The notes under the pieces were generated by a model. That model ran no database searches. It saw only the letters and a program-made list of their open reading frames with translations, and had not been told where the DNA came from. This document shows, one piece after another, positions 5,056 to 26,960 of a DNA stretch of 64,000 nt. Source of the DNA: Clostridiales bacterium (GTDB lineage: Bacteria > Bacillota > Dethiobacteria > Dethiobacterales > Dethiobacteraceae). Position numbers and translations under genes: made by a program. The stretch is taken from positions 1 through 64,000 of the forward strand of contig JAGXRM010000006.1 in assembly GCA_018335855.1 (NCBI GenBank), in the 5' to 3' direction. Position 1 is the stretch's first letter. Every line of letters begins with the position of its first letter.

Positions 5056-5077
5056 CATTGTTTGTTTGTGCTAAAAT
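5049..5077 (+). promoter_or_regulatory. probable sigma-A promoter of the PT modification operon
   Basis: TTGTTC at 5049-5054, a 17-bp spacer and TAAAAT at 5072-5077 (5 of 6 to the -10 consensus). Transcription would start near 5084 and leave a leader of about 75 nt that contains the dyad at 5088-5127. Confidence 0.5.
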
Positions 5078-5087
5078 TAATTAAGAC

Positions 5088-5127
5088 GTTGGATGAGATA
5101 ATTATTTTTTTATTATCGTCATCCAAC
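5088..5127 (+). promoter_or_regulatory. 40-bp dyad in the leader of the PT operon
   Basis: GTTGGATGA (5088-5096) is inverted exactly as TCATCCAAC (5119-5127). GATAAT (5097-5102) pairs with ATTATC (5112-5117) across a single bulged G. The total is a 15-bp arm around a T-rich centre. It sits just after the predicted start site, so it could be an operator for an unlinked regulator or an RNA hairpin in the leader. Confidence 0.6.
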
Positions 5128-5157
5128 AGGAGAATCGCAAGTTTAGGTTGAATTGAT

Positions 5158-6777
5158 ATGATGGTGGTGAGCCCCTTGAGTGACATATTTTGGTGTAATA
5201 ATTGTAAAGTCCCTTTGTTAAAAAAAGAATGTGGGATTTGTCATGATGATGGTCAACGTGTTGCTTCTGATATTCGGCCTGTTTTCCCAGAAGAGAAGAG
5301 GTTGCTAGAAGTTCTTTTGGAATATGAAGAAGGTTATTTTAGAGATAAATCCGTTTGGGATACAAATAGTAACTATCTACTTATTGATGGAGTTACAGTT
5401 GCTTTAAATAAAGGAAAGCTAATGAAGCTAGATCCGGGTGAAATTAGATTAAAGTTAAAAAGATGCAGTGTACCCGATGATGAGCTTATAGAATTTGAAG
5501 ATAATGTGGATAAATTTGTAAGATGCAATCAAAATAGTTTAAACGAGTCGGAGATAGAAGCTTTCGACATTATTAAGGAAGCACGTATGGGCCGTGATAA
5601 ACATATTTCCATGGTTTCATTTAGCGGAGGTAAAGACTCTACGGTTGTATCTGATTTGGTGCGCAGAGCTTACGCTAACCAATCTGTTTTACATATCTTC
5701 GGCGACACTACACTTGAGCTGCCTGACACACAAGAATATGTAGCTAGATTTAAGAAGTTTCATAATAAGACTCCTTTTTTAGAAAGTAGGTCACATCATA
5801 ATTTTCGAGACCTTTGTGAACAAATAGGACCGCCTAGTCGTGTGATGCGCTGGTGCTGTACAATTTTTAAGACGGGGCCTATCAGTCAAACCTTTGACGG
5901 AATCAGTAGGACGAAGTCAATATTGACTTATTATGGTATACGGAAGTCTGAATCTAACCAAAGAGCAAACTACAAAGCAATTACACAGTCCCCCAAGGTT
6001 ACTAAACAAACAGTCGTGTCTCCAATTATTAACTGGATAGACGCAAATATATGGTTATATATTCTCTCAAGAAAACTGGATTTTAATGATGCTTATAGAT
6101 ACGGTTTTTCTAGAGTTGGGTGTTGGGCATGTCCTAGTAATAGTTTGTGGGCGTTTTTCTTGACACGAATTTATTTTCCGGAATTCTCTGAGCCATGGAG
6201 AGAATTTTTAATTGAAGTAGCTGTAACAATGGGGAAACCGGATCCTGAAGAATATGTGGATTCAGGTAATTGGAAGGCTCGCCAAGGGGGACAGGGTTTA
6301 ACCACTGCATATAAAGGCTTGGTTACATCGAAGCCATGCGGTGACGATCCTGATGCTAAGACTTATACCTTAACCAAACCCATTAGTGAAGAGCTTTACG
6401 AGTATTTCAAACCGTTTGGAGACGTGGCTATTGGACGAGGGCGGTCCTTGCTAGGTGAAGTTTTCATATTAAACAAGCATACACAGGAGCCTTTATTGGT
6501 TATTCAGGGTCGAACAGGAACGAGTGAATTGAGAGTTAAGGTGGTTAGTTCAAAAAACACAATATTATTAATGCATAGGGTGGATTGTCAAATACGTAAA
6601 TATCAATCCTGTGTACTATGTAGCGGATGCTCCTCAGTTTGCCCACTCGGCGCAATTTCTGACAAGGCTGGCAGATACACTATTAATCAAGAAAAGTGTG
6701 TTAATTGTTTAAAATGTGTTGCTCACTTTGATACTGGTTGTTTAGTAAGTAAGGTTCTACAAACGAGAAGGAGTTAA
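5158..6777 (+). CDS. SspD-like PAPS-reductase family ATP pyrophosphatase with Fe-S domain
   Basis: This is a 539-aa protein of the PAPS reductase/DndC superfamily, expected to activate the DNA backbone for sulfur insertion using ATP. An N-terminal zinc ribbon (CNNC and CGIC, residues about 12-30) is followed by the PP-loop SGGKDS (about 155-160), the substrate region with RWCC, and GCWACPS. The C-terminus has a ferredoxin-like module with two cysteine groups (CVLCSGCSSVCP and CVNCLKC, about 485-530). The start is either ATG at 5158, with a weak ribosome site, or TTG at 5176, preceded by GGTGGTGAG. The gene is first in an operon with DUF4007, large ATPase and cysteine desulfurase genes. That company points to the single-strand phosphorothioation (Ssp) system rather than Dnd. 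Confidence 0.8.
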   Translation: MMVVSPLSDIFWCNNCKVPLLKKECGICHDDGQRVASDIRPVFPEEKRLLEVLLEYEEGYFRDKSVWDTNSNYLLIDGVTVALNKGKLMKLDPGEIRLKLKRCSVPDDELIEFEDNVDKFVRCNQNSLNESEIEAFDIIKEARMGRDKHISMVSFSGGKDSTVVSDLVRRAYANQSVLHIFGDTTLELPDTQEYVARFKKFHNKTPFLESRSHHNFRDLCEQIGPPSRVMRWCCTIFKTGPISQTFDGISRTKSILTYYGIRKSESNQRANYKAITQSPKVTKQTVVSPIINWIDANIWLYILSRKLDFNDAYRYGFSRVGCWACPSNSLWAFFLTRIYFPEFSEPWREFLIEVAVTMGKPDPEEYVDSGNWKARQGGQGLTTAYKGLVTSKPCGDDPDAKTYTLTKPISEELYEYFKPFGDVAIGRGRSLLGEVFILNKHTQEPLLVIQGRTGTSELRVKVVSSKNTILLMHRVDCQIRKYQSCVLCSGCSSVCPLGAISDKAGRYTINQEKCVNCLKCVAHFDTGCLVSKVLQTRRS

Positions 6778-6783
6778 AGTATA

Positions 6784-7638
6784 ATGAGTTATGCTCGTCA
6801 TCAAACGTTTTATTTACGTTCTGGTTGGTTGGCTAAAGCATTGGAAGCACTACCGTGCGAACCCAAGTTGTTTTCTGGGGATAAAGCAACGGTACGACTG
6901 GGTATTGGTAAAAACATGGTGCAATCATTGCGATTTTGGGTGAGAGCTGCTGGGCTAGCTCACCCAGTCTCTCGTGATAAAGGTATGGAACTGACGCGCT
7001 TTGGGGAAATGGTTTATAGGAATGACCCCTTTTTCGAACTTGACTTAACTTGGTGGCTAATCCATTACCATATAGTGAAGGATGAGCATGAGGCTACATC
7101 TTGGTATTATCTATTTAATAAGTTTTCTAGAAATGAATTTGACAGAATCACCTTCATAGATGCAGTTTCCCAGTACTCAGGCATGGCTGTATCCCAGTCA
7201 TCATACCAAAAGGATTATGATTGTATTATAGCCACGTATGTTGTTTCTGAAAGAGTACAGGGAACCCCTGAAGATAACACCATTTGTCCTCTAACCAAGC
7301 TTGGCTTGCTTACGCCTATGCGGCATAACGTCATTCGTAAGTCTTCACCCAACACTCAATTACCGCTTGAGGTAGTGTTCCTGGTATTAAGTAAAGCATC
7401 GGAGAGTCTTCATCAAAACATTTCTAGTCTTCTTGAGGATCCCGGCAATATTGGTAAGATATTTAATCTCTCCTTAGATTCTATTTATCGTTATCTTGAT
7501 TTACTAGAAGATAAGGGATGGCTCTCTTTTTCTCGTACTGCTGGAATTGATACAATAAGTGTTTCAGCTCCTGACGCATGGGATTTAATTGAATCTAACT
7601 ATAAATCTATACAGTGGGGTGATTCTAGTGAAGCTTAA
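6784..7638 (+). CDS. DUF4007 protein, SspB-like DNA nickase
   Basis: This is a 284-aa DUF4007 family protein. In Ssp systems the DUF4007 protein SspB is a DNA-nicking enzyme needed to place phosphorothioate on one strand. Conserved-looking features are the N-terminal FYLRSGWLAKAL block, the LGIGKNMVQSLRFWVRAAGL helix region (about 41-60), a WWLIHYH segment (about 97-103) and a C-terminal winged-helix-like part. The start follows AAGGAG by about 10 bp and lies 6 bp after the SspD-like stop. The stop overlaps the next gene. I could not identify the catalytic residues, so the nickase role is by family and context. Confidence 0.75.
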   Translation: MSYARHQTFYLRSGWLAKALEALPCEPKLFSGDKATVRLGIGKNMVQSLRFWVRAAGLAHPVSRDKGMELTRFGEMVYRNDPFFELDLTWWLIHYHIVKDEHEATSWYYLFNKFSRNEFDRITFIDAVSQYSGMAVSQSSYQKDYDCIIATYVVSERVQGTPEDNTICPLTKLGLLTPMRHNVIRKSSPNTQLPLEVVFLVLSKASESLHQNISSLLEDPGNIGKIFNLSLDSIYRYLDLLEDKGWLSFSRTAGIDTISVSAPDAWDLIESNYKSIQWGDSSEA

Positions 7639-10600
7639 TGAACTCCTCACCATATCCCCAGGCTTCCATCGCTCTGTCAATATAAAATATGATCTAAGTA
7701 ACCCAGATAAAGTAGCTAGCTTTATTCCGACGGAAAAGTCAGAGCTCGTATTCGAACATGTGCTGTCTGCCTTAAAAGGGACAGTTGAAGATGGAGCATC
7801 TATGCTCATTGGAAGTTATGGAACCGGTAAGTCCCATTTAGCAACAGTTCTAGGCAGCTTGTTTGGAAAATGTGTTGATTCCACAAAATTTGATCCTGTT
7901 GTAACGAAAATTATAAAAAAAGAAGTTAAAGATTTACTGTTAGAAGAGCTACAAAAGAATAGCCCGTATTTATTAATTCCTATATCCGGTGGAGTGGGGC
8001 TGTCTCTGAATCAGCAGCTGCTTGCTTCATTGAAACGTGCGCTTGTAGAAAATGGATTGTCTTTTACAATTGATTCTAGTTTTACAACCGCTATGAATTG
8101 TATTAACACATGGTCAGAAGACTTTCCAGATACTCTGGAGTCTCTTAAAACTATACTTGCAGAGATTAGTTTTGGCACTGTGGATAGCTTAATGCAACGA
8201 CTAAATGACTTTGAACCCGAGGCTTTAGAGGCTTTTGTTAGAATTTACCCCAAACTAGCTGCAGGTGCAAGTTTTGATTATTTCAGCGGTGACGTAGCAG
8301 ATATTTATCAAAGTGTTTGTTTTGAGCTTAATAAGCATGGCTATCGAGGTATTTTTATTATTTTTGATGAATTCAACAAGGTTATGGATGCATCCCGTAG
8401 TGATAGTAGCACGCTAAAGACTCTGCAGGATCTAGCAGAGCTTGCTAGTCGTTCTGATGACATTTTTAAACTACATCTCTTACTTATTTCTCATCGGACT
8501 ATTGGGCAATATTTACCTCTTATGACTAGTGCCTTAGCAGAAGAGTGGCAGAAAATAGAAGGACGTTTTAAAGTATTTGATGTCTCCAACAAATCTTGGG
8601 AGACCTACGATCTAATAAGCAGAGTAATACATAAGAAAGACCCACGCTTCTTTAGTATTTTGACTAAGGAAAATGTAAAAATAGAAAAGATTAGCGATCA
8701 TCGTAGGCTGAAAAATCTGTTTGAAGGGTTATCCGATCAAATTAGAAATGATGTTATCATTAAAGGGTGCTTACCCCTTCATCCTGTTACCGTGTTCATT
8801 CTACCAAGAGTTTCAGCCAAACTTGCTCAGAACGAAAGAACTCTTTTTACGTTTTTAGCAGGCCACGATGAAAGCCCTATTTTATCGGCTCTATCCCGAG
8901 ACGTTAATGACTTTGAATACATTACCCCATGGCAGGTTTATGATTATTTTGAGCACCAGCTCAGTTGTGCTCAAGATGAAAATTTGAAAATGATTTGGAC
9001 TAAGGTAACCAATGCTTTAGAATCGCTGCCGAGTGACGCTATTTCAGAGGCGAAATTCGTAAAGACCATAGGCATATTTCAAGTTGCTGGTAATTCTATT
9101 AACTTGCCATGCACTACTGAGATGATTGAGTATGTCATCGGCAATGATGACTATAAAGTTGCACGTCAATCTCTGCAAGAAAGAAAACTTATCTACGTGC
9201 GGCAGTCAACGCTTGAAATAGAGATTGTTGAACCGGCTGATTTTGATGTAGAGGGTGAGATTAAACTTTGGTTACAGCAAAAGCCCATGGGTGTTTCTGC
9301 GTTATCGTATGTTGAAGAACTGGGAATACGACATTACTTTTATCCGCACCGTTATAATCATAAATATAAGATTACTCGTTACCTAACACCGGTATATGCG
9401 AACATTGAAAATGTGCAAACAATTATTTCAAATGGAACATTGTCTCCTATTTACGATGGTAATGACGGTGTTATTTGCTATTTGTTTCCCGAGACTAAAG
9501 AAGAAATGAAAGAGCTTTCCCAAATTGCATTGAATTGTAATGATAAAAGGGTGTTCATTGCAATTTCAGCGGAGCCTTTTCCTATTCGAGAAACAATTTG
9601 GCGATTAATGGCTCTAAATGATATTAAACGTTCCTTTGAGATGAGGTCCGTAGACTCTCGCGTACAAGCGTTAGTCGATATATATTATGAAGATGCAAGG
9701 CAAGATTTAATAAATAAAATTGAGCGAATAACCGTTTATTCAAACAAGATATTATATTTTTGGGACGGCACACAAATTAAAATCAAAGGAAGTGAACGTG
9801 AGTTATCGTTTGATGTTTCAAATATGTTAGAAAAAGTGTACCATGCCACACCTATAATTAATAACGAACTTATTAATAAGAACAACCCTACCTTGACTTC
9901 TCGCAGAGCCCGTAATGACGTTATTGATGTTATCCTTAAAGGATATAAGGATATAAGACCACGTTTACGTTCTTCCCAAGAGGCCTTCATGTTTGATACT
10001 GTATTTATAGAGACGGGGTTATTTAACGAGGAGTCATGTATTTTTACGGCTAGATCAAACGGTTTGGAACCGACTCTAGTAACTATGGAAGAATACTTCC
10101 TTGATACAAAGACTGAAGCTAAGGGATTTGATGTCCTAATAAAAAAGCTAATTAAACCTCCTTTTGGTATTCGCCGAGGAATTATTCCAGTATTATTAGC
10201 TGCTTGTGTCGATAAGTATAAACAGTATATAACTATACGCGACGCGGCAGGCGTTGACTGCCATATTGATGCCAGTTTACTCGATAAAATTGTTCAGGCT
10301 CCGAGTGATTATAGCTTAAAAATTGATGATTGGAATGAAGCATCGGAACAGCTAACTACCGGCCTTGCTGAGCTATTTGGTTGGGAGTTACCAGAAAATA
10401 TATTTTTTGCAAATAAGTTTGGAGAACTGGCTGATGAAGTGTTTCGCTGGTTTACTGGGCTTCCGCGCTTTACACGAGAGACTAATTCGGTCAGTCATGC
10501 AGCACGAACATTTCGTAGATTTACTCGAGTTGCCAATCGCAATCCAAAACAGATATTGCTTCAGGATCTGCCAAAAGACCTTGGCTTTAATGAGTACTCA

Positions 10601-11185
10601 GTTGATGATGTTAGTACACTACTAGGTGTTATAAAAACAAGTAAGGAAGAGCTTGAAAATGCGTTAACTACCCTTACAGAGCGGGTTAACAGTAAGCTTT
10701 ACGAATTTTTCAGTACTTATGGAGTTCCTGGTGAGTCGTTGATTAGTCTGGCAAGAAACATGTCAGAAGCTATGCTAAAGAGTAAACTGCCAAGCCTGGA
10801 ATGGGCAAACATAGTTGATTACATTTCTGGGTTTGATGGGTATGATGAGTTTAAGTTTACGCACAGTTTTACTCAGATTTTGACTGGTGTACGTTTGGAA
10901 GACTGGTTGGATAAGACTGTAATTGATTTTGATACTTTGATATCGGAATTAATGAATAGTTTTCAGCAAGTAGCAGCTACAGACGTAGGTGGCCCCCGGG
11001 CTGAAGTATTGTTTTTGGATTCAGCTTATGACAAAGAAAAATATACTTTGTATGAGTGCGAATTATCTGACCTGGGAAAAACACTACAGACGTACATAGA
11101 ATCATCAATAGAAAATTTTAGTGATGCTATTTCTCCATTAGAAAAGCGACAAATCTTATTAAATCTCCTTAGGGGGCATATTTAG
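7628..11185 (+). CDS. SspC-like large ATPase
   Basis: The product has 1185 aa from GTG at 7628, chosen because GTGGGG lies 7 bp upstream and the protein then starts VKLNELLTISPGFH. An in-frame GTG at 7619 is the alternative. The Walker A motif is GSYGTGKS (about 62-69) and Walker B is IIFDEFN (about 245-251), followed by a long region with no recognised domain. In Ssp loci the matching gene, SspC, is a large ATPase essential for sulfur modification, thought to drive the nickase and sulfurtransferase steps on DNA. The start overlaps the end of the DUF4007 gene by 11 bp, which implies coupled translation. The length is normal for the family. Confidence 0.7.
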   Translation: MKLNELLTISPGFHRSVNIKYDLSNPDKVASFIPTEKSELVFEHVLSALKGTVEDGASMLIGSYGTGKSHLATVLGSLFGKCVDSTKFDPVVTKIIKKEVKDLLLEELQKNSPYLLIPISGGVGLSLNQQLLASLKRALVENGLSFTIDSSFTTAMNCINTWSEDFPDTLESLKTILAEISFGTVDSLMQRLNDFEPEALEAFVRIYPKLAAGASFDYFSGDVADIYQSVCFELNKHGYRGIFIIFDEFNKVMDASRSDSSTLKTLQDLAELASRSDDIFKLHLLLISHRTIGQYLPLMTSALAEEWQKIEGRFKVFDVSNKSWETYDLISRVIHKKDPRFFSILTKENVKIEKISDHRRLKNLFEGLSDQIRNDVIIKGCLPLHPVTVFILPRVSAKLAQNERTLFTFLAGHDESPILSALSRDVNDFEYITPWQVYDYFEHQLSCAQDENLKMIWTKVTNALESLPSDAISEAKFVKTIGIFQVAGNSINLPCTTEMIEYVIGNDDYKVARQSLQERKLIYVRQSTLEIEIVEPADFDVEGEIKLWLQQKPMGVSALSYVEELGIRHYFYPHRYNHKYKITRYLTPVYANIENVQTIISNGTLSPIYDGNDGVICYLFPETKEEMKELSQIALNCNDKRVFIAISAEPFPIRETIWRLMALNDIKRSFEMRSVDSRVQALVDIYYEDARQDLINKIERITVYSNKILYFWDGTQIKIKGSERELSFDVSNMLEKVYHATPIINNELINKNNPTLTSRRARNDVIDVILKGYKDIRPRLRSSQEAFMFDTVFIETGLFNEESCIFTARSNGLEPTLVTMEEYFLDTKTEAKGFDVLIKKLIKPPFGIRRGIIPVLLAACVDKYKQYITIRDAAGVDCHIDASLLDKIVQAPSDYSLKIDDWNEASEQLTTGLAELFGWELPENIFFANKFGELADEVFRWFTGLPRFTRETNSVSHAARTFRRFTRVANRNPKQILLQDLPKDLGFNEYSVDDVSTLLGVIKTSKEELENALTTLTERVNSKLYEFFSTYGVPGESLISLARNMSEAMLKSKLPSLEWANIVDYISGFDGYDEFKFTHSFTQILTGVRLEDWLDKTVIDFDTLISELMNSFQQVAATDVGGPRAEVLFLDSAYDKEKYTLYECELSDLGKTLQTYIESSIENFSDAISPLEKRQILLNLLRGHI

Positions 11186-12340
11186 TTGTTAAAAAAAGAT
11201 TTTATTTACCTTGACAATGCAGCTACTACCTTTCCAAAGCCAGAAGGAGTTACGAAAGCAGTCACTGACTGCCTTAGCAACTATGCCGCAAACCCTGGGA
11301 GGGGTCGCAACCCCCTTGTTAAAAGGGCGAATGAGCAATTGGAATTAACACGGCTGACATTAGCAAGGTTTTTAGGTGCCAAACCGGAACAGCTTATATT
11401 TGTTCCCTCAGCTACTTATGCAATAAATATTGTCATGCAAGGAATAAGCTTAATCTATGGTGACACTTTATATATGTCACCATTTGAGCATAATGCGGTA
11501 GTAAGATGTGCGGACCATTTAAATAAGTCGCATTCTGTACGTGTAGAAACGCTACCTTTAGCGAAGGATGGCACGTTTGATGAAGAAGAAACACGAAGGT
11601 GGTTTGCATCTGCTCCGCCAAAGCTAGTTGTTATCACTCATGCTAGTAATGTCACAGGAGATATTTTGCCTATCCAGGATATTATTAATTTAACACATGA
11701 ATACGGCGGAAAAGTTTTAATAGATGCTGCTCAGACGGTGGGCATACATACACCTCTACTAGATGGGTGTAACTATGATTTCCTTGCCTTTTCCAGCCAT
11801 AAAGGCCTATACGGTATGCCAGGGTCAGGAGGCCTAGTAATTAAAGATCATACTGAAGTTCTTCAGCCTTTAATATATGGCGGCACCGGTATTAATTCTG
11901 AAGATGTTCTTATGCCCTTAGCATTACCTGAAAGATTTGAGTCCGGAACACATTCATTACCGTCAATAATCTCTATGCTCGCAGGAGTTCAATGGCTTGA
12001 GGCAACAGGCTTAGACATAGTCCGTACTAGAGTTAGTAAGCTAACGCAACAATTACTAAACGGTCTTTCTTCTTTAAATATTTCAGTTGTAGGACATGAT
12101 TCTATTCATGGGAATACTGGCGTTGTATCTTTTATTATCTCCGATGTTGGTCCACAGGAGATTAATGCTCTTTTGGATGAGTATGGATTCTGTATTCGAA
12201 GTGGTCTACATTGTGCACCATTTGCGCATCAAAGGTTAGGAACCTTTCCAAACGGGACAGTAAGAATAAGTCCCGCTTATTTTAATACAGAAGATGACAT
12301 CAACAGTCTTCTAAATGCTGTTGAAGGCTTATGTATTTAA
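11186..12340 (+). CDS. cysteine desulfurase, SspA-like
   Basis: This is a 384-aa class V aminotransferase fold PLP enzyme that takes sulfur from cysteine to make a protein persulfide. The PLP lysine lies in SSHKGLYG (about residue 206) and the catalytic cysteine in SGLHCAP (about 342), followed by GTVRIS. The start is TTG, directly after the SspC-like stop and 9 bp after AGGGGG. The position as last gene of the PT operon suggests it feeds sulfur to the SspD-like protein through its Fe-S domain. Many PT loci use a housekeeping IscS instead, so a dedicated desulfurase makes this module self-contained. Confidence 0.85.
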   Translation: MLKKDFIYLDNAATTFPKPEGVTKAVTDCLSNYAANPGRGRNPLVKRANEQLELTRLTLARFLGAKPEQLIFVPSATYAINIVMQGISLIYGDTLYMSPFEHNAVVRCADHLNKSHSVRVETLPLAKDGTFDEEETRRWFASAPPKLVVITHASNVTGDILPIQDIINLTHEYGGKVLIDAAQTVGIHTPLLDGCNYDFLAFSSHKGLYGMPGSGGLVIKDHTEVLQPLIYGGTGINSEDVLMPLALPERFESGTHSLPSIISMLAGVQWLEATGLDIVRTRVSKLTQQLLNGLSSLNISVVGHDSIHGNTGVVSFIISDVGPQEINALLDEYGFCIRSGLHCAPFAHQRLGTFPNGTVRISPAYFNTEDDINSLLNAVEGLCI

Positions 12341-12429
12341 TTAATTTTTACAGTAATCCTAAGACAACTAAACTTAACTTATGTAAAAAAATGCTCTTGT
12401 GTAGGATTTTCCCATATATTGCCGAATAT

Positions 12430-12479
12430 AGAAGTGGTATAAGAAGTCCTGTTCTTCTGTACTACTTCTTTTCTTTTTA
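12430..12479 (+). terminator. terminator of the PT modification operon
   Basis: The outer stem AGAAGTGGTA (12430-12439) pairs with TACTACTTCT (12460-12469), one G-T pair included. An inner stem AGAAG/CTTCT is present, and a T-rich tail follows. It divides the locus into two transcription units. The 316-bp gap 12341-12656 otherwise holds only the weak promoter below and a ribosome site. Confidence 0.75.
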
Positions 12480-12502
12480 TATTAAGTAGATAACTTCTTC
12501 CT

Positions 12503-12530
12503 TTGATAGTTGAGATGGAATATATAACAT
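12503..12530 (+). promoter_or_regulatory. weak candidate promoter of the restriction-side operon
   Basis: TTGATA at 12503-12508, a 16-bp spacer and TAACAT at 12525-12530. An imperfect dyad (AGTGTT...AACGCT) lies near 12616-12630, before the first gene. Both are weak matches. Confidence 0.3.
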
Positions 12531-12656
12531 GCGGCTATTTGCAAGGTTTCGAGCAAGTTTGGTCGAAGTCATATGATGTTAAGATGAATATTCTATATTT
12601 CCAATTCAACATATAGTGTTGTTAACGCTACTTTAAAAGGGTAAGGAAGTGAAATT

Positions 12657-14831
12657 TTGAGTTTTTTGAAATTAGATATACAGAGTGAATATAGGTCTCT
12701 TATTGACAATATAGCAAGGGATTTTTATATACCTTTGCTAAAAAACGCTGTCCTTTACAAGCGGGCAGTTGGCTATTTTTCATCATCGGCGTTAGTAGAA
12801 ATATCGCAAGGTATTACAGGCTTAGTGGAGAATGGTGGTACTATTCAGCTTGTTGCTTCGCCTCATCTTTCTTCTGAGGATATGATAGCTATACAGAAGG
12901 GCTATGATTCTAGAGAGCAGGTTATTGAAAGAGCGCTTTTGTCTTCTCTTGTTGAGCCGAAAAATTATTTTGAGGAAAGGCGCCTTAATTTGCTGGCAAA
13001 TCTTATAGCTGACGGAAGACTGAATATTAAGATTGCTTTTACTGAGAGCAATAACACACTGGGGATATACCACGAAAAAATGGGTTTACTCTATGATGCT
13101 GATGGCAATGTTGTTGCTTTTGCCGGTTCCATGAATGAAACGGGTGCAGCTATGGTACTTAATTATGAAGCTATTGATGTGTTTTGCTCATGGACAAAGG
13201 ATAAGGATCGTGTAGAAGCTAAGGAAAGCGCGTTCTCATCAATATGGAACAACTGCGAGCCCAACGTTCAGATAATCGAATTCCCTAATGTTCGAAAGGA
13301 AATTTTAAATAAGTACAAACGTGCTCCGATTGACCTTTTTATTGATATAGAAGAGTTTGGCTCTGATGATTCTTCATTGCAGTATAAAGTCAAAAGGGTA
13401 GGAGCTGTAATGCCTTCTAGTGTGAAGTTGCATGATTACCAATTAGAAGCAATAAGCGAATGGGAAATAAGAGATTACCGTGGCATCTTTGATATGGCTA
13501 CAGGTACTGGTAAGACATTTACTGGTTTAGGTGCGGTAGCAAAATTATGTGAGTACAATAATAAGCTGGCCGTAGTAATTGTATGTCCTTATCAGCATCT
13601 TGTTGAGCAATGGGTTGAGGATATTATTCAATTTAATATAAACCCAATCGTTGGTTATAGCAGTTCTCCTCAGAAAGATTGGAAACGGCAGCTAGAGAAC
13701 GCAGTACGTGATCAAAAGCTAAAAGTAAAAAATAGAGAGTTTTTCTGCTTTATATGTACTAATGCTACATTTGCATCCGATTATGTACAAAAGCAACTTT
13801 CAAAGATTAAAGGGAATGCGCTCCTAATCGTAGATGAGGCACATAACTTTGGGGCTGAAAGACTTAGCTCAATGTTAACTGAAACATTTAACTACAGGTT
13901 GGCTTTATCTGCTACTTTAGAACGACATAATGATGAGGAAGGTACTGAGAGACTTAAAAATTATTTTGGTCAGAAGTGTATCGAATATCCGCTAGAGAAA
14001 GCAATCGCGGAACACAAACTAACACCCTACAAGTATTATCCTGTTTTAGTTAGTCTTTCTGAAAAGGAGTTGGAAGTTTATTCTTTCTTATCACAAGAAA
14101 TAGCAAAGTGCTTAATTCAAGATAAGAATAACAAACTAAAGCTATCTGAAAAAGGTAAGAAGCTTGCGTTAAAGAGGGCAAGGCTTGTAGCTGCTGCAGA
14201 ATCTAAAATTGATAAACTCCGTGAAATAATAATGCCGTATGTAAATAAGAGCTATATACTGGTGTACTGCGGTGCTGCGTCATTGTTAGGTGATAATGAT
14301 GACTATACACCCGTGGAAGAAGATGATATCCGACAAATCGACGCCGTTACCTTAATGTTAGGCAATGATCTAAACATGAAGGTGTCGCAGTTTACTTCAA
14401 AAGAGGATGTTGAAGAAAGAAAGATTCTTAAACGTGAATTTGAAAAAAGTGAGAAACTTCAGGTCTTAATTGCTATTAAGTGTCTGGATGAAGGCGTTAA
14501 CATTCCGGATATCAGGGTAGCCTTTATCTTAGCTAGCACAACAAATCCTAAAGAGTATATACAAAGACGTGGACGCGTTCTGCGATTGGCTCAAGGCAAG
14601 GATTATGCAGAGATATATGATTTCATAACAACACCACGACCTCTTGATGAAGTGTCATCACTTACGCTCGATGAGATGAAAAAAGATTTATCATTGATAA
14701 AAAACGAGCTGAATAGAGCAGAGGAGTTTTCCCGTATCGCTATAAATTCTATGCAAGCTGATACAGTTATTCAGCAAATCAAAGAGGTCTATGGTTTGCA
14801 TGAAGATACATTTGATTTTGCAATCGAATAA
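12657..14831 (+). CDS. PLD-nuclease and SF2 helicase fusion, PT-dependent restriction candidate
   Basis: The product has 724 aa; the start is TTG at 12657 after AAGGAAG. Residues 1-200 form a phospholipase D-like domain with H-x-K (YHEKMGLL, about 138) and GSMNETGAA downstream. Residues 250-700 are an SF2 helicase: ATGTGKT (281-287), DEAH (about 395), SAT, and motif VI QRRGRVLR (about 638). Proteins with this architecture occur as the restriction partner in phosphorothioation systems and in SspFGH-type modules, where DNA lacking PT is damaged. It starts the second operon after the terminator. Assignment to SspF specifically is inferred from order and architecture. Confidence 0.7.
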   Translation: MSFLKLDIQSEYRSLIDNIARDFYIPLLKNAVLYKRAVGYFSSSALVEISQGITGLVENGGTIQLVASPHLSSEDMIAIQKGYDSREQVIERALLSSLVEPKNYFEERRLNLLANLIADGRLNIKIAFTESNNTLGIYHEKMGLLYDADGNVVAFAGSMNETGAAMVLNYEAIDVFCSWTKDKDRVEAKESAFSSIWNNCEPNVQIIEFPNVRKEILNKYKRAPIDLFIDIEEFGSDDSSLQYKVKRVGAVMPSSVKLHDYQLEAISEWEIRDYRGIFDMATGTGKTFTGLGAVAKLCEYNNKLAVVIVCPYQHLVEQWVEDIIQFNINPIVGYSSSPQKDWKRQLENAVRDQKLKVKNREFFCFICTNATFASDYVQKQLSKIKGNALLIVDEAHNFGAERLSSMLTETFNYRLALSATLERHNDEEGTERLKNYFGQKCIEYPLEKAIAEHKLTPYKYYPVLVSLSEKELEVYSFLSQEIAKCLIQDKNNKLKLSEKGKKLALKRARLVAAAESKIDKLREIIMPYVNKSYILVYCGAASLLGDNDDYTPVEEDDIRQIDAVTLMLGNDLNMKVSQFTSKEDVEERKILKREFEKSEKLQVLIAIKCLDEGVNIPDIRVAFILASTTNPKEYIQRRGRVLRLAQGKDYAEIYDFITTPRPLDEVSSLTLDEMKKDLSLIKNELNRAEEFSRIAINSMQADTVIQQIKEVYGLHEDTFDFAIE

Positions 14832-14852
14832 TTATAGAGAGGGGGTTTAGCA

Positions 14853-15017
14853 ATGGTAGAGGCCACTAGTATCCAAATTGATGAGAAAAAGGCCCAAAGA
14901 TTGCTGCAAAAGCTCATCATCATGGAGAAAAATAATATTAAGACAAAGCAATACAATGATGGTGAAATGGTTAAGAAGATAAAGAAGGCCATCGAGGAGG
15001 AAGTAGAATGCTATTAA
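14853..15017 (+). CDS. 54-aa charged helical protein in the restriction operon
   Basis: ATG at 14853 follows GAGGGGG. The protein is 54 aa, acidic and basic residues alternating, with a long predicted helix (EKKAQRLLQKL, then KKIKKAIEEEVE). It overlaps the next gene by 10 bp, so translation is probably coupled. I do not recognise a family. Its conserved-looking spacing and ribosome site argue that it is real and works with the helicase or the DndD-like ATPase, perhaps as a small adaptor. Confidence 0.65.
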   Translation: MVEATSIQIDEKKAQRLLQKLIIMEKNNIKTKQYNDGEMVKKIKKAIEEEVECY

Positions 15018-17002
15018 AATCTCTAAGTCTTTTAAATTTCCGGCAATTTAAAGGTGAACAGGAAGTAGTCTTTGCTGCAGATGATATAAAGAATGTAACG
15101 ATTATAATGGGCGAAAATGGTTCAGGCAAAACAACGTTAGCACAAGCTTTTTCTTGGTGTCTTTATGGGGATACGGATTTTGATGATAAATCTATGTTGA
15201 ATAAGATTGTTGCTGGTCAACTTCTGCCAGATAAAGAAAGCAAAGTTAGGGTTGATTTAAGCCTAACTCATGGCAATACAGACTACGTTATTACTCGAGA
15301 ACAAATATATAAGAAAGACTTAACTGGAAAAATCAAGGCCAATAATACCACTTTTTATATCTCGTTTAAAAAAGACGGTCAACAAGAGTTTCTTAAACCC
15401 AACGAAGCAGAAGTGAGAATGAAGCAGATACTACCCAAGGAATTATCAAAGTATTTCTTCTTTGATGGTGAACGTATTGGGAGTATGAGCAAAGAGATTA
15501 AGAAGGGAAAAAGCCAGGAATTTGCTCAAGCAGTACATGGGCTTTTAGGTTTAAATGCCTTTATTGCTGCTCTTCAGCATTTAAAGCCAACGTCAAAATA
15601 TGGTGTAATCGGCAGCTATAATGAGAGTTATGACTCATCAAGCGACTCAAAAATTATACAGTACACCCAGGAAACAGACGCTATTCAAGACAAGCTCGAT
15701 AGTATTGATGCACGACTAGTAGAAATAGAAAATGAAGTACAAATTGCGCGAGAGAAATGTGAGGAACTTTCGCAACGACTGAGTTTGAGTGCTGAAAGTG
15801 AAAAATTGCAAAAGGAAAAAGAGCGACACAGAAGCACATTGGAAAAGACAAGACTAGCAAAGTCTTCAGCTATGTCTTCACTATTAAAGCATTTTAACAC
15901 TAATGCTTCGTCATATTTCGCTAAGTCCATGATAAAAGATGCCTTGGAGAGCTTATCGAAAGCGGATAAGCTAGATAAAGGTATTCCCGATATGCATGCC
16001 CGAACCATAGAATTTTTGATTAAGCGAACATTTTGTGTTTGTGGTAATAAGATTGAGTTTGGAAATGATGCATATAACGAACTTAATAAGGCCTTAGCTT
16101 TTTTGCCACCACAGTCAATTGGTGTATCAATTGCGCAATTTGTAAAAGAGGCTGAACTGAGAACAAAATCCTCTGCTACTTTATTTGAAAGCATTTCGGA
16201 ACAGTATGCTTTGGTGCGTGAATATGAAACAAGAATTGATGAATTAGTGAGTGATATCCAAGCCATTGAACAGCAGTTGATTGGCAAAGAAAAATTCGCT
16301 TCCGTACAGCAGGACTTAATGAGGTATGAAAAGGTCATAAGAGACAGACAAAATGAACGAGATGTGCTTAACCAAAAAAAAGGAGCTTTGCAAACTTCAA
16401 GAGAACGTTATATTACGGAAAGGACTGAATTAACTCTCCGGGATGGTAAAAATAGAAAGATTGAAGTTTATAAAGCTTATGCGAAGTTTATGTATGATGA
16501 AATCTCAAGGGTCTATAAGGTAAACGAAGATAAAACAAGGGAAGAGTTGGAAAGAAACGTTAATGAGATATTTAAGAATATTTACGAGGGCGGTATGTCG
16601 TTGACCATTGACGAAAAATACAACATTCAGGTGATTGTGGATGAGTTTGAGGGCTATAACACAGATGTTGAGACTTCTACAGCGCAAAGCATATCAGTAA
16701 TTTTTGCCTTTATCTCAGGTATTATTAAGATGGCTAGAGAAAATAGTAATGCAACAGACATAGAAACTAAGATGCTTGAATCCGAGCCTTATCCTCTCGT
16801 CATGGATGCGCCTTTATCGGCTTTCGATAAGCGCAGAATTAAAACAGTCTGCGATGCTCTGCCAAAGATTGCAGAACAGGTTATCATCTTTATTAAAGAC
16901 ACTGATGGTGAACTCGCTGAGGAAAATATGGGTGCGAAGGTTGGTAAAAGATATTTATTTGATAAGAAAAATGAATTCGAAACCTATCTGATGGCGAGGT
17001 GA
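15008..17002 (+). CDS. DndD-like SMC-family ATPase
   Basis: The product is a 664-aa protein with the RecF/SMC-like layout of DndD. The Walker A is GENGSGKTT (35-43) and the block YFFFDGERI (about 151-159) is characteristic of DndD-type proteins. A coiled coil (about 220-290) and a short CVC motif (about 342-344) near the hinge precede a second coiled coil (about 400-480). The ABC signature is degenerate, and the Walker B/D-loop is LVMDAPLSAFDKRR (about 597-610). It would bind or remodel DNA ends using ATP. Because the modification operon already has an SspC-like ATPase, this copy more likely belongs to the restriction half. Confidence 0.8.
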   Translation: MLLKSLSLLNFRQFKGEQEVVFAADDIKNVTIIMGENGSGKTTLAQAFSWCLYGDTDFDDKSMLNKIVAGQLLPDKESKVRVDLSLTHGNTDYVITREQIYKKDLTGKIKANNTTFYISFKKDGQQEFLKPNEAEVRMKQILPKELSKYFFFDGERIGSMSKEIKKGKSQEFAQAVHGLLGLNAFIAALQHLKPTSKYGVIGSYNESYDSSSDSKIIQYTQETDAIQDKLDSIDARLVEIENEVQIAREKCEELSQRLSLSAESEKLQKEKERHRSTLEKTRLAKSSAMSSLLKHFNTNASSYFAKSMIKDALESLSKADKLDKGIPDMHARTIEFLIKRTFCVCGNKIEFGNDAYNELNKALAFLPPQSIGVSIAQFVKEAELRTKSSATLFESISEQYALVREYETRIDELVSDIQAIEQQLIGKEKFASVQQDLMRYEKVIRDRQNERDVLNQKKGALQTSRERYITERTELTLRDGKNRKIEVYKAYAKFMYDEISRVYKVNEDKTREELERNVNEIFKNIYEGGMSLTIDEKYNIQVIVDEFEGYNTDVETSTAQSISVIFAFISGIIKMARENSNATDIETKMLESEPYPLVMDAPLSAFDKRRIKTVCDALPKIAEQVIIFIKDTDGELAEENMGAKVGKRYLFDKKNEFETYLMAR

Positions 17003-17007
17003 TTATG

Positions 17008-17535
17008 ATGTTTGAGAAAGAATATTCTTTTAGGGGCTCACATGCGGAAAAAGTAATAAAACTTACAGCCCAATTTGACAAGAATATTACAACAAAGCTA
17101 TTTGCCCGTAACATTGATGTCTATATTATTGCACCATTAATTGGTTTTTTGTATGGCCGCAAAGATGACATTGATAAGTCCAACGAGACTACTAAGATTT
17201 TTCCACAGCAGCTTCTAAATGAACAGACGAATCTAAAGTACAATTATCAACTTATAATGCTCCTGGATAAAAAAAATGAACCATCTTTTGATGAACGATT
17301 AAATAAAGCATTTCGTTATTATGGAAGTGATAAGGCTAATGACGACGAAAATCTATTTGAACAGTATGTACTTGGCGGTATTAATGTTTTGTATGAGAAG
17401 CTTATAGAAAACGCTACAGTAAGTGAGGACTATATTAGAAATTTGTATGATTTCATGGATGATTTTAATGAGCGGTACAACGAAGCTGTTTCCACTGATA
17501 GTATCATGGAATTGTGTAAATTAGCGAGAAGCTAA
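17008..17535 (+). CDS. unknown 175-aa protein of the PT restriction operon
   Basis: ATG at 17008 is preferred (GAGGTG 6 bp upstream); ATG at 17005 is also possible. The first half contains FRGSHAEKV, LFARNIDVYIIAP and GFLYGRKDDIDKS, then TTKIFPQQL, which look like a conserved family. The second half is acidic and helical. It resembles no enzyme I know. The gene overlaps nothing but starts 5 bp after the DndD-like stop, so it should be part of the same complex. It may be the third component of an SspFGH-like set. Confidence 0.6.
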   Translation: MFEKEYSFRGSHAEKVIKLTAQFDKNITTKLFARNIDVYIIAPLIGFLYGRKDDIDKSNETTKIFPQQLLNEQTNLKYNYQLIMLLDKKNEPSFDERLNKAFRYYGSDKANDDENLFEQYVLGGINVLYEKLIENATVSEDYIRNLYDFMDDFNERYNEAVSTDSIMELCKLARS

Positions 17536-17560
17536 AATATGACGGGTAGAGATAATTGAT

Positions 17561-18649
17561 ATGAGTTTAGAGCATAAAAAGCAACAGGTTGTGAATAGCT
17601 TAATAGAGCTATCAATTAAAAAAGGGTTCGTTACTATTGAGGAAATCCTTAATTGCCTTAATACAGTTAACATGCCCTTAGATGAGGTTGACCGACTTTG
17701 TGAGGCTCTCATAAGCCGTAGTGTTATAATTCGTGAGGGATCCGATTATGCAGAGATTCAGGTAAACGATAATGGTGAGTATCACTATGATAAAAGCAGG
17801 ATTGACTATGATGCACTTTTTGACAAGGTGATTAAATTAGACCCATCTTTAACGGATTATGTGAATGAAATTAGGCTTATTCCACCGCCACAACATAGAG
17901 AAGAAATATCGCTTATATATCATGCGAAGGATGGTAACACCTATGCTAGAGAGAGGATAATTACCATGTATTTAAAAGTAGCATTAAGAATAGCTTTTTG
18001 GAATTATGAAAAGTATGCGTTGCCTTTGGCTGAAACAATACAAGATGCTAATATGGGTTTAGTAAAAGCCTTAGATAAAATGCCGCTAAACCCAGAAAAC
18101 AGATTCTCCACATACGCTCCCTGGTGGATGCGGCAGTATATCTATAGAGCTACACAGGGTATTAGCAAGAAGTACTATTTGCCTGTACACTTAAAAGACA
18201 AAATGTACGTGGTCATAGAGATTAAAAATAATCATGATTGTGATATGTGTTTGAATGTGCGTTTTTGCCCAGGGCTAATTGAAGAAATATGCCAACGACT
18301 TTCGGTGAACCATGAAACCGCTGAAAGCTACCTCGATATTATTGAAGAGCCAGTAAATATCGATGAAAACTTAGAGAGTGAAGAAGATGCGCTAATGTAT
18401 AGCGATAATGGAGCAATTGAAGCTAGATGGTTAAAAGACGCAATTAAAGAAACTTTAGCGACGCTGCCACATAAAGAACGTAAAGTAATTGAGTTGCGTT
18501 TTGGAATTAATGATGGAGTTGAAAAAACGCTGGAAGAAATCGGGCAAGTTTTTAATGTAACAAGAGAACGCATTAGACAGATTGAATCAAAGGCAATAAA
18601 AAATCTTAAGCATCCAATCAGGTCAGTAAAATTAAAAGCTTACTATTAG
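17561..18649 (+). CDS. sigma-70 family RNA polymerase sigma factor with a cysteine insert
   Basis: The product is a 362-aa protein. Residues 1-85 resemble sigma region 1.1, and residues about 125-215 are region 2 with RFSTYAPWWMRQYI. Region 4 near the C-terminus has TLEEIGQVFNVTRERIRQIE (about 320-345), close to housekeeping SigA in the -35-reading helix. Region 3 is altered: HDCDMCLNVRFCPG (about 225-239) carries three cysteines not found in SigA. It lies 25 bp after the PT restriction genes in the same orientation. A full sigma factor in a defence operon is unusual; it could redirect transcription to the island or respond to redox or sulfur state. Regions 2 and 4 look intact. Confidence 0.85.
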   Translation: MSLEHKKQQVVNSLIELSIKKGFVTIEEILNCLNTVNMPLDEVDRLCEALISRSVIIREGSDYAEIQVNDNGEYHYDKSRIDYDALFDKVIKLDPSLTDYVNEIRLIPPPQHREEISLIYHAKDGNTYARERIITMYLKVALRIAFWNYEKYALPLAETIQDANMGLVKALDKMPLNPENRFSTYAPWWMRQYIYRATQGISKKYYLPVHLKDKMYVVIEIKNNHDCDMCLNVRFCPGLIEEICQRLSVNHETAESYLDIIEEPVNIDENLESEEDALMYSDNGAIEARWLKDAIKETLATLPHKERKVIELRFGINDGVEKTLEEIGQVFNVTRERIRQIESKAIKNLKHPIRSVKLKAYY

Positions 18650-18768
18650 TATGATAATATATCGTCGTATTTTTAAAATTAACAGGACTGTGCAATCGGT
18701 CAGGTGCTTTATTCCAGTCAATCGAATTGTATCACCGGCTGGGGTACCCTGATAGTGAGGATTAATTA

Positions 18769-19476
18769 ATGAATAGTTGTATCTTCTGTGATAAAAAAGC
18801 ACCAGATATCCTCTGTGAAAACGAATTAGCTAAAGCCTTCTACGACGGGTTTCCTGTCAATCTAGGGCATGTACTGGTGGTGCCAAAGCGACATCTGGAA
18901 ACCTACTTTGATGCAAGTATAGAAGAGCTTGCGGCCATGCAGGAATTAGTATTTCAGGTGAAAGAAATAGTGGAAAAAAAATATAACCCGGATGGGTTTA
19001 ATATCGGTGTAAATGTGGGCATAGCCGGTGGACAGTCAGTCTTTCATTTACATTTTCATGTGATCCCGAGATATGTGGGGGATGTGAAAAATCCCCGGGG
19101 CGGTATACGCAGGCTTAAAAAGAGTGTTGTGCCTTATCCCTTAGAGGATAACGGCATTCAGGAGTACGGGAAGTTGGTTCGGGATAAAATTCCGGAAATT
19201 ATTCAGAATGCGGGGAAAGAGCCAGTAGTTCGTGTGGCGGAGCAGGACGAATATCAAAGCTTGTTAATGAAAAAATTGCAGGAAGAGACATATGAATTTC
19301 TTTCATCCGGGAATGTAGAAGAGATTGCGGATATCGTTGAAGTCATTAAAGCAATTTTAGACAGTCAGGGCTTAAACTGGTCACAGTTAGATGAAATGAT
19401 GAATAAGAAAGCTGACGCCAGAGGCAGATTTCAGAACCGCACAGTATTGGAGCGCGTAGTGGATCTGAAGGAATAA
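18769..19476 (+). CDS. HIT hydrolase fused to a MazG-like NTP pyrophosphohydrolase domain
   Basis: This is a 235-aa two-domain protein. Residues 1-115 form a HIT domain with N-terminal CIFCDK and the histidine triad HLHFHV (about 92-97), which would cleave dinucleoside polyphosphates or adenylated compounds. Residues 130-235 begin YGKLVRDKIPEII and contain EETYEF and EIADIVEVIKAI, typical of the phosphoribosyl-ATP pyrophosphohydrolase/MazG-like helical fold. Both halves clean up nucleotides. The fusion sits between the sigma factor and the XRE regulator and ends at a terminator shared with the convergent gene. Confidence 0.85.
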   Translation: MNSCIFCDKKAPDILCENELAKAFYDGFPVNLGHVLVVPKRHLETYFDASIEELAAMQELVFQVKEIVEKKYNPDGFNIGVNVGIAGGQSVFHLHFHVIPRYVGDVKNPRGGIRRLKKSVVPYPLEDNGIQEYGKLVRDKIPEIIQNAGKEPVVRVAEQDEYQSLLMKKLQEETYEFLSSGNVEEIADIVEVIKAILDSQGLNWSQLDEMMNKKADARGRFQNRTVLERVVDLKE

Positions 19477-21880: not shown

Positions 21881-21994
21881 TGTGGCGAAAAATGAAGAAG
21901 AGTTAAATAGTATTCTATAAGTTCCGGCAATTGATAGAAGCACTTCGGCAAGCCGCCTGAGAGATAATCTTTTTAGTGCAAAGGAGCTATGAGA

Positions 21995-24900
21995 ATGAAA
22001 TCCATCGCCTACATTGATCTGGAAGTGCACCCAAAGAATGGCGCTATTTTGGATATTGGCGGTATCAATGATGCTGGGGATATTTTTCATTCAAAATCCA
22101 TAGCTGGCTTTGTTGATTTTCTTAGAGATGCTGATTGTTTATGCGGCCATAATATCATTAAGCATGATCTGAAATACATACAGCCGACTTTGGAGAACTC
22201 TGGGATAGCAACAGAAAATGTAATAGACACTCTGTATTTATCGGCCTTACTGTTTCCCCGGAAGCCTTACCATGCCCTTGTTAAAGATGAAAAGCTGCAA
22301 ACGGATGAATTGAATAATCCTGTGAATGATTCAATAAAAGTCAAAGAGTTATTCGCTGATGAAGTGATGGCGTTCAATCATTTAGAAGACTCGTTAAAGC
22401 AGATTTTTTATGCGTTATTGCAGAATCAAAAAGAGTTTCGATCCTTTTTTCAATACCTGGGCTACGAGGCCATGGTAGAGCCGGTATTACTTATCAAAAA
22501 ACATTTTGTATCAGAGATCTGTGAAAGTGCGGATCTTAGAACATTGATTGAAGAGTATCCTGTTGAATTAGCTTTTGCTCTGGCAGTCATTAATGTGAAG
22601 GATCGCTTTTCCGTTACACCACCATGGATACTAAAGAATTATCCTGAGGTGGAACGGATCATGGATTTATTGCGAAATCGTCCTTGTCTTAGGGGATGCT
22701 CTTATTGTGAACAAGCTCTGGATGCGCGTAGGGGATTGAAATGGTTTTTTGGATTTGATTCGTATCGGACGTTTGGAGGGGAACCGCTGCAGGAAAATGC
22801 TGTGAGGGCAGCCATTGATAATAAGTCACTTTTGGCGATCTTTCCTACAGGGGGCGGTAAGTCGCTTACTTTTCAGGTGCCCGCTTTAATGAGTGGAGAA
22901 AACGTTAAGGGGCTTACGATTGTTATCTCTCCATTGCAGTCTTTGATGAAAGATCAGGTAGATAACCTGGAGAAATCAGGGATAATGGATGCAGTGACAA
23001 TCAACGGTTTATTAGATCCTATTGAAAAAGCGAAGTCTTTTGAAAGAGTGGAAGACGGCTCGGCTTCTCTTTTATATATATCTCCGGAGTCTTTACGATC
23101 CAGAAGCATTGAACATATCTTGCTGGGCAGAAAGATTGTTCGCTTTGTTATCGATGAGGCTCACTGTTTTTCTGCCTGGGGGCAGGATTTCCGGGTGGAT
23201 TATCTGTATATTGGCGATTTTATTAAAACTATACAGGAGAAAAAGAATCTTGCAGAAGGAATTCCTGTATCCTGTTTTACCGCCACAGCCAAGCAAAAGG
23301 TCATTGAAGATATTCTGGCTTACTTTAAGGACAAGTTGTCGATAGATTTAGATGTATTTAGCTCCAGCGCTAGCCGGACGAATTTACGATACAAAGTTAT
23401 TGAAAAAAGGAATCAGGACGAAAAATACAATACGCTCAGGAATTTAATAGAACAGAAAGAATGTCCTACCATTGTTTATGTTTCCAGAACAAGGAGAGCC
23501 TATGAGCTTGCCGAGAGGCTAACCAAGGACGGGTATCTAGCCAAGCCATATCATGGGAAAATGGATAAGAAAGAAAAATCGGAAAACCAAGATGCCTTCA
23601 TTGCCGGGGAGGTACCCATTATGGTGGCTACCTCTGCTTTTGGTATGGGCGTGGACAAGAAAGATGTGGGCATGGTCATCCACTTTGAAATATCTGATTC
23701 TTTGGAGAATTATATTCAGGAAGCAGGCAGAGCCGGACGGGATGAGCAAATTACGGCGGACTGCTATATTTTATATTGTGAGGATGATCTGGATAAACAC
23801 TTTGTGTTATTAAATCAGACAAAAATTAACATTAAGGAAATCCAGCAGGTTTGGAAAGCGATCAAAGGGGTTACCCGCTTTCGCAAAACGGTCTCCCAAT
23901 CAGCTCTGGAAATTGCCAGAAAGGCAGGTTGGGATGAAAGCATTAGCCAAATAGAAACACGGGTAAAAACTGCGATTGCTGCTTTGGAGGAGTCGGGGTA
24001 TATTCGGCGGGGTCAGAACATGCCAAGGGTTTATGCTGACAGTATCCTTTGCCGAAATGCACAGGAAGCTATTGAAAAAATCAATGCTTCAAAGCTTTTT
24101 GATGAAAAGGAAAAGGAAAATGCTACACGGATCATAAAAAAACTCATTTCCAGCAGAAGCCGGAGTCTAGTTGATGAGGACGCAGAGTCTCGGGTGGACT
24201 ATATATCTGACCAGCTTGGGATTGAAAAAGTAAACGTCATTAGTAGCCTTAACTTGCTGCGTGAAGAAGGGATTCTGTCAGATGCCAAAGATCTCTCGGC
24301 CTATATTAAGCAAGGGGAAAGGACAAACCGTTCCTTGCAGCTTTTTGAGGCGTATAGCAGTATTGAAAAATATTTGGCCACGGTTTTTGAGGAAGAAGAG
24401 GCAACCTATAATCTAAAAGAATTGAACGAAGAAGCGGAAAATTTCGGTTGTAATAATGTAACGCCGAATAAGATACGCGTGATCTTAAATTATTGGACAA
24501 TTAAAAAGATGATTAAATATAAGGGATTAGAGTATTCGAAAAACCATATACGGCTCATTGCTCTGGAGTCGAAAGAAAAGTTTCAGGAGCGATTAGAAAA
24601 AAGACAGGAACTGGCCAAATTTGTGGTTGAATATCTTTATTCTCAAGGCAGTGAGTTAAAAGAAGAGGTCGAGACGGAAGAAATACTGGTAGGCTTCTCG
24701 GTAAATGAATTAAAGAAAGCATATGAAGAGAGTCTGAGGCTATTTAAAACTGAGGTTAGTATTGCAGATATTGAGGATACTCTTTTCTATTTATCTCGTA
24801 TTGAGGCAATAAAAATTGATGGCGGTTTCATGGTGGTTTATAATCCTATGACCATTGAACGGCTGGAGGAAGATAATAAGAGACGCTATAAACTTGAAGA

Positions 24901-26812: not shown

Positions 26813-26868
26813 CTAACTGTTAGAAAAGCCTTAGAGGAATGCCTTTTAGGCCAGGCAAGGCATACCGG

Positions 26869-26902
26869 CAGGCGGGTTGGGGCACATGTGTCCAGCCGCC
26901 TG
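26869..26902 (+). terminator. imperfect hairpin after the giant helicase gene
   Basis: CAGGCGG (26869-26875) pairs with CCGCCTG (26896-26902), with an interrupted inner stem ending in CAC/GTG. The tail is only weakly T-rich, so termination is uncertain. Confidence 0.35.
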
Positions 26903-26960
26903 TTATTTCATAGTTGGGGAGCTGACTTTTATAAGAAAATCAGGAAGGGGATGAAGGAGT

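What the first reader, a model, noticed from the sequence alone, without database searches (positions are those of the whole stretch)
17561..18649. A dedicated sigma-70 factor at the end of a phage-defence operon
Regions 2 and 4 look functional and SigA-like, yet region 3 is replaced by a segment with three cysteines (C-x2-C-x6-C). Sigma factors are not known parts of PT systems. It could switch on the island or other genes when PT, sulfur supply or redox state changes, or replace a phage-targeted sigma factor. This is the strongest candidate for an undescribed component.
Basis: partly seen in the sequence, partly recalled or inferred. Interest (0 to 1): 0.85.

Follow-up and report, generated by a model that had tools for sequence, protein, structure and literature searches.

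The report
Sigma factor tied to phage-defence operon
This gene encodes a strongly altered relative of the cell's main transcription-start protein, and in three bacteria from two classes it sits as the last gene of the same DNA-sulfur-linked defence operon, so it is probably a dedicated part of that defence module rather than a stray neighbour.

Summary
In detail: 17561-18649 encodes a 362-aa sigma-70 protein, 25 bp behind the last gene of an SspDBCA-PbeABCD phosphorothioate defence operon. Two details were wrong. Region 3 is diverged and carries a cysteine loop, but it is not replaced. The motif is C-x2-C-x5-C, not C-x2-C-x6-C.

The protein is a fast-evolving RpoD paralogue. The host's own rpoD lies elsewhere and is about 33% identical.

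The key new result is conservation. The same sigma sits in the same slot, right after the DndE-like PbeD gene, in G143 (another class; 42% identity) and G013 (same family; 31%). The three sigmas form one clade (99/98) with 19 residues absent from seven RpoDs. Their PbeA and PbeC genes form one clade too; their SspC and SspA do not. In G143 the ssp genes lie about 31 kb away. So the sigma belongs to the Pbe module, not to sulfur modification. In 399 phylum genomes, no homologue closer than RpoD lay outside a Pbe locus.

It probably binds core RNA polymerase and reads RpoD-like -35 elements with altered -10/discriminator preference. Its targets are unknown. A close precedent is MzaA, the sigma of the Mza system. 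The cysteines are shared by two of the three proteins.

The parts
17561..18649 (+). RpoD-derived sigma-70 factor, 362 aa (Pbe-associated sigma)
   Evidence: ORF; Pfam r2/r4; SigA full-length match; syntenic orthologues L036:12754-13854 and L049:1294-2373
18203..18274 (+). Cysteine-bearing segment in region 3.1 (residues 215-238; C227, C230, C236; fourth Cys C244 just after)
   Evidence: sequence; C-x2-C-x5-C shared with G143 orthologue (CNQCDCNKIC), absent in G013 and in RpoD; loop between predicted helices 209-225 and 239-247
18521..18643 (+). Region 4.2 with the -35 recognition helix (TRERIRQIE), intact
   Evidence: 59-61% identical across the three sigmas and 68% to host RpoD
16999..17535 (+). 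PbeD, DndE-like partner of the CxC ATPase (178 aa)
   Evidence: no family-model hit; assigned by position after PbeC and conservation in Pbe loci
15008..17002 (+). PbeC, CxC-type ABC ATPase (CVC motif in sequence)
   Evidence: PADLOC PbeC E 2e-111
14853..15017 (+). PbeB-like small ORF (54 aa) overlapping pbeC start
   Evidence: read; same slot and size as small ORFs between pbeA and pbeC in annotated Pbe loci
12657..14831 (+). PbeA, PLD nuclease + SF2 helicase
   Evidence: PADLOC PbeA E 1e-248; TIGR04095 dnd_restrict_1, below its cut-off
11186..12340 (+). SspA/DndA-type cysteine desulfurase
   Evidence: PADLOC SspA E 1e-42
7589..11185 (+). SspC/BrxC-type ATPase (true start probably downstream of 7589)
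   Evidence: PADLOC SspC E 4.5e-134
6784..7638 (+). SspB (DUF4007)
   Evidence: Pfam DUF4007 E 9e-70; PADLOC SspB E 6e-60
5158..6777 (+). SspD/BrxP-like PAPS-reductase-family sulfurtransferase with ferredoxin-like C-terminus
   Evidence: PADLOC BrxP E 5e-90, SspD E 6e-17; NCBIfam

Best explanation
The gene encodes a dedicated alternative sigma factor, derived from RpoD, that is the last cistron of a PbeABCD module and is inherited with it. Shown here by comparison: identity as a full-length sigma-70 (regions 1.1 to 4), fixed position after PbeD in three loci, and common descent with PbeA/PbeC. Inferred: it binds the host core polymerase through region 2, reads RpoD-like -35 elements through an intact region 4.2, and has a different -10/discriminator preference because the T440-equivalent and region 1.2 are changed. 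Inferred with less certainty: it drives transcription of the Pbe module and/or other anti-invader genes as a positive loop or an infection-time switch. In two of the three family members a metal- or thiol-based cysteine loop in region 3 may tune its activity.
For: Sigma-70 regions 2 and 4; co-linear match to SigA over residues 7-361; Foldseek best hits all sigma A/S/70 chains. Same slot in G143 and G013, 4-25 bp behind dndE/pbeD. Sigma clade 99/98 and 99/99; 19 residues identical in the three and absent from 7 RpoDs, against at most 4 in control triples. PbeA and PbeC of the three loci form one clade (SH-aLRT 99), SspC and SspA do not. G143 belongs to another class, so operon and sigma moved together between lineages. 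Q437, R441, Y430, W434, H455 and the TRERIRQIE helix are kept; T440 is Y/I/S; Q406 is kept with D403E/E407D in two of three. No homologue closer than RpoD elsewhere in 399 genomes.
Against: No experiment; no core binding, promoter or regulon has been shown. The promoter scan of 4700-18900 finds no excess of sigma-70-like sites (38 against 43 expected), so no target promoter is identified. Only three family members are known. Most related Pbe loci work without it (24 without). The region 3.2 finger is shortened and region 3.1 is poorly conserved (8-17% between the two closest members), so initiation activity could be reduced.
Confidence: 0.6

Rival explanations
1. Non-transcriptional role: the sigma fold serves as a DNA- or RNA-polymerase-binding adaptor of the Pbe complex, for example targeting the nuclease/ATPase to promoters or to phage transcription complexes, without starting transcription.
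For: Sigma-derived HTHs recur in defence proteins: region 4 in 1026-1135 aa proteins that are the first gene of Pbe operons, a sigma-type HTH inserted in DndH (PMC10853773) and in BrxL (PMC12839542). Region 3.2 finger shortened, region 3.1 diverged.
Against: The whole sigma architecture is kept, including region 1.1-like and 1.2-like parts, core-binding Q406 and -10 melting residues; a mere HTH adaptor would not need them.
Confidence: 0.15
2. Sigma replacement: it keeps host or defence genes transcribed when a phage inactivates or diverts the housekeeping sigma.
For: RpoD-like but strongly diverged surface, fastest-changing gene of the Pbe module (42% between window and G143 against 65-71% for PbeA, PbeC and PbeD), intact -35 helix.
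Against: No direct evidence; altered -10 and region 1.2 residues argue against simple substitution at RpoD promoters.
Confidence: 0.12
3. Ordinary second RpoD paralogue that landed next to a defence island by chance.
For: RpoD paralogues occur elsewhere, e.g. G048 and G055; the sigma is missing from most Pbe loci.
Against: Same slot, strand and spacing in three loci from two classes, shared clade, 19 shared diagnostic residues, co-inheritance with pbe.
Confidence: 0.05
4. Decaying passenger gene under relaxed constraint.
For: Long branches and very low conservation of region 3.
Against: Open in all three genomes over large divergence, with region 4.2 and region 2 motifs kept and three cysteines held in register in two of them.
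Confidence: 0.05

Closest known systems
RpoD/SigA (group 1 sigma-70)
   Same: Length, order of regions 1.1-4, -35 recognition helix, -10 melting residues
   Different: About 33% identical to host RpoD; NF006666 score 196 against cut-off 572; T440-equivalent changed; region 1.2 signature (IRxxxPPQxRE) replaces IGxIPLL; finger shortened; cysteine loop; gene in a defence operon, not beside dnaG
MzaA of the MzaABCDE anti-phage system
   Same: A sigma-70 factor encoded in a defence operon (PMC9523054); C-terminal sigma part aligns
   Different: MzaA models are 683-726 positions and match only residues 124-361 here; score 167 against cut-off 800. No MzaB-E model was hit in the operon genes scanned. 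Host RpoD scores higher against the PADLOC MzaA model than this protein does (234 against 102 bits)
PbeABCD (CxC ABC ATPase-DndE systems)
   Same: PbeA, PbeB-like, PbeC and a DndE-like gene as in the published system (PMC10853773)
   Different: Coupled to an Ssp modification module and carrying a sigma as fifth gene, not described in the papers read
Sigma-region-4/alpha-CTD-like large proteins at the head of other Pbe operons (L. plantarum, Ruegeria, G228, G187)
   Same: Sigma-derived DNA-binding part encoded with pbe genes
   Different: About 1000 aa, no region 2 match, first rather than last gene; not orthologous
Sigma-HTH inserts in DndH and BrxL
   Same: Sigma-related HTH in PT/BREX defence (PMC10853773, PMC12839542)
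   Different: Single HTH domain within large enzymes, not a complete sigma factor

Membership tests
Sigma-70 family | Regions 2 and 4 above Pfam gathering scores | tested here: met
   29.1 against 24 and 66.5 against 24.1 bits
Sigma-70 family | Binds core RNA polymerase and directs promoter-specific initiation | not testable with these tools
   Only sequence proxies: Q406, Q437, R441 equivalents kept
RpoD/SigA housekeeping sigma (equivalog) | Score above NCBIfam equivalog cut-off | tested here: not met
   NF006666 196.2 against 572 bits
RpoD/SigA housekeeping sigma (equivalog) | Sole principal sigma, next to dnaG | tested here: not met
   Host rpoD beside dnaG-like gene at G000:C8
MzaA | Score above NF041931 cut-off and about 700-aa architecture | tested here: not met
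   167.5 against 800 bits, 362 aa, N-terminal 470 model positions unmatched
MzaA | Adjacent MzaB-E genes | tested here: not met
   No MzaB-E hit among the operon genes scanned
PbeABCD system (the operon) | PbeA PLD-helicase and PbeC ATPase | tested here: met
   E 1e-248 and 2e-111
PbeABCD system (the operon) | Small PbeB gene | tested here: met
   54-aa ORF 14853-15017 between pbeA and pbeC, identified by position and size only
PbeABCD system (the operon) | PbeD with tandem ribbon-helix-helix DndE fold | tested here: inconclusive
   178-aa gene in the right slot; no profile hit; fold not modelled
SspABCD phosphorothioation module | SspA, SspB, SspC, SspD all present | tested here: met
   PADLOC hits to all four; the SspD gene matches BrxP best
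Cysteine metal/redox site | Conserved ligand set across orthologues | tested here: inconclusive
   C-x2-C-x5-C shared with G143, absent in G013

The most novel reading that the evidence does not exclude
A defence-dedicated sigma factor that takes over host RNA polymerase when phage attack or a redox/metal signal reaches its region-3 cysteine loop, making transcription re-programming an integral step of a Pbe immune system.
Probability: 0.15. Interest if true: 0.85.

Novelty: new variant of a known kind. Interest (0 to 1): 0.62.

Why it matters
The papers read on phosphorothioate/Pbe defence concern mainly modification and cleavage, not how these operons are switched on. A sigma factor that is co-inherited with PbeABCD gives a direct handle on that question, and together with MzaA and the sigma-region-4 proteins found at the head of other Pbe operons it suggests that recruiting parts of the transcription-initiation machinery is a repeated theme in this class of defence.

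Tried and rejected
Pattern scans of viral contigs with the sigma alone, the three-sigma alignment and the DndE alignment found no relative. tblastn of plasmids and phages with the sigma returned only about 27-37% identical sigmas annotated RpoD or unannotated, uninformative. The paralogue G000:C8 and L008 first looked like relatives but are rpoD beside dnaG. The G189 sigma near a divergent Pbe locus (L046) is closer to RpoD than to this family, so it was not counted as an orthologue. The promoter scan gave no excess, so no regulon is proposed from sequence; the TTGTTC-17-TAAAAT site upstream of sspD (about 5050-5080) is a by-eye match only. G472 (PbeC 47%) has no sigma reading frame in the 262 bp left on its contig after dndE, so absence there is only partly tested.

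Full report
What is there. The ORF at 17561-18649 (+) starts with ATG and gives 362 aa. Pfam finds sigma-70 region 2 and region 4 above their cut-offs and region 1.1 just below. phmmer aligns residues 7-361 end to end with SigA chains of the PDB, best with Clostridioides difficile SigA. An AlphaFold2 model (mean pLDDT 76, pTM 0.44) has the expected chain of helices, and its Foldseek hits are sigma A, S and 70 chains. The host has its own rpoD beside a dnaG-like gene at G000:C8, about 33% identical.

The setting. Upstream on the same strand lie SspD/BrxP-like, SspB (DUF4007), SspC, SspA, PbeA, a 54-aa PbeB-like ORF, PbeC and a DndE-like PbeD. The gaps are small or overlapping, except 316 bp between sspA and pbeA; the sigma starts 25 bp after pbeD. 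This is an Ssp modification module joined to a Pbe module. The PbeABCD naming and the CxC ATPase-DndE reading follow PMC10853773. The sequence of PbeC shows the CxC motif (CVC). PbeD has no profile match and is assigned by position and conservation.

The cysteines are C227-x2-C230-x5-C236, with C244 following. They lie in an extended loop between the first and second helices of region 3, which is present but strongly diverged. In the G143 orthologue the three cysteines are in the same register (CNQCDCNKIC) although little else of that segment is shared (8% identity in the gapped alignment); the G013 orthologue lacks them and has a normal-length region 3 with a weak Pfam region 3 match. A cysteine switch is therefore possible in part of the family but is not a defining feature.

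Is it a dedicated component? Searches for PbeA, PbeC and PbeD homologues in the phylum gave loci that were fetched with their flanks. In two of them, G143 (L036, different class) and G013 (L049, same family; first met), a sigma gene follows pbeD by a few base pairs on the same strand. The three sigmas form one clade against RpoDs and sporulation sigmas (99/98; 99/99 without the most distant rows). All have long branches, so a second line of evidence was sought: 19 alignment columns are identical in the three and absent from seven RpoDs, while control triples that mix in an RpoD give at most four. Many of these lie in region 1.2 (IRxxxPPQxRE) and region 2. PbeC and PbeA trees of 27 and 25 loci place the three sigma-bearing loci together (SH-aLRT 99), needing one change of state. 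SspC and SspA trees do not (three changes). In G143 the ssp genes lie about 31 kb from pbe-sigma on the same contig. The sigma thus follows the Pbe module. A search of 399 phylum genomes with the G143 sigma at a threshold that excludes RpoD returned only the window and G143.

How it probably works. Mapped by alignment onto E. coli sigma-70 numbering (numbering and roles from general knowledge), Y430, W434, Q437, R441 and H455 are kept in all three, and the -35 helix TRERIRQIE is unchanged apart from one I-to-V step in G013. The T440-equivalent, threonine in all but one of the RpoDs compared, is Y, I or S, and region 1.2 is rewritten. Core-contact Q406 is kept, with D403E and E407D in two members. 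This predicts a core-binding sigma with RpoD-like -35 preference and different -10/discriminator preference. Region 4.2 is among the best conserved parts; region 3.1 the least. No target promoter could be identified: the promoter scan found no excess over shuffles. Autoregulation of the Pbe module is the simplest target but is an inference.

Known precedents. MzaA of the Mza system is a sigma factor in a defence operon (PMC9523054; NF041931), but this protein fails the MzaA cut-off and architecture, and host RpoD scores higher against the PADLOC MzaA model than it does. Sigma-related HTHs are reported in DndH (PMC10853773) and BrxL (PMC12839542). Independently, other Pbe operons begin with a protein of about 1000 aa carrying sigma region 4, in some cases with alpha-CTD-like domains (L. 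plantarum and Ruegeria plasmids, G228, G187), and G189 has an RpoD-derived sigma near a divergent Pbe locus. Sigma-derived parts thus recur around Pbe systems. In the papers read, no stand-alone sigma in a PT/Pbe operon is described; the library does not hold most subscription papers.

Verdict. A real, conserved, accessory component of one Pbe subclade, new as far as the held literature shows, with function inferred from sequence.

Noticed in passing
window 5158-17535 and loci L036-L073: Ssp-type modification genes (SspD, B, C, A) directly joined to PbeABCD recur in many phylum genomes and, divergently arranged, on a Rhizobium indigoferae plasmid: an Ssp-Pbe hybrid.
   Followed up: partly
L042:9638-13045, L043:5041-7917, L074:5759-9001, L108:3858-6938: Proteins of about 1000 aa with sigma-70 region 4, in some with RNA-polymerase alpha-CTD-like or HhH domains, directly precede pbeA in other Pbe operons; function unexplained.
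   Followed up: partly
L046:3230-4339 (G189): A separate RpoD-derived 369-aa sigma lies between a divergent Pbe locus and a RecQ-like helicase, closer to RpoD than to the window sigma.
   Followed up: partly
window 21989-30241: A 1607-aa fused RecQ-UvrD helicase, a second RecQ-like helicase with a phosphoribosyltransferase-like part, and a DprA-like gene downstream of the sigma look like a further defence cluster.
   Followed up: no
window 405-4745: AAA_13-type ATPase fragment, HSDR_N plus AAA protein of 771 aa and a uracil-DNA-glycosylase-like protein precede the ssp operon.
   Followed up: no
window 7589-11185: The SspC of this window is unusually divergent (about 30% identical over full length to other Ssp-Pbe loci) although its PbeA is 59-68% identical to the nearest ones, suggesting a swapped modification module.
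   Followed up: no
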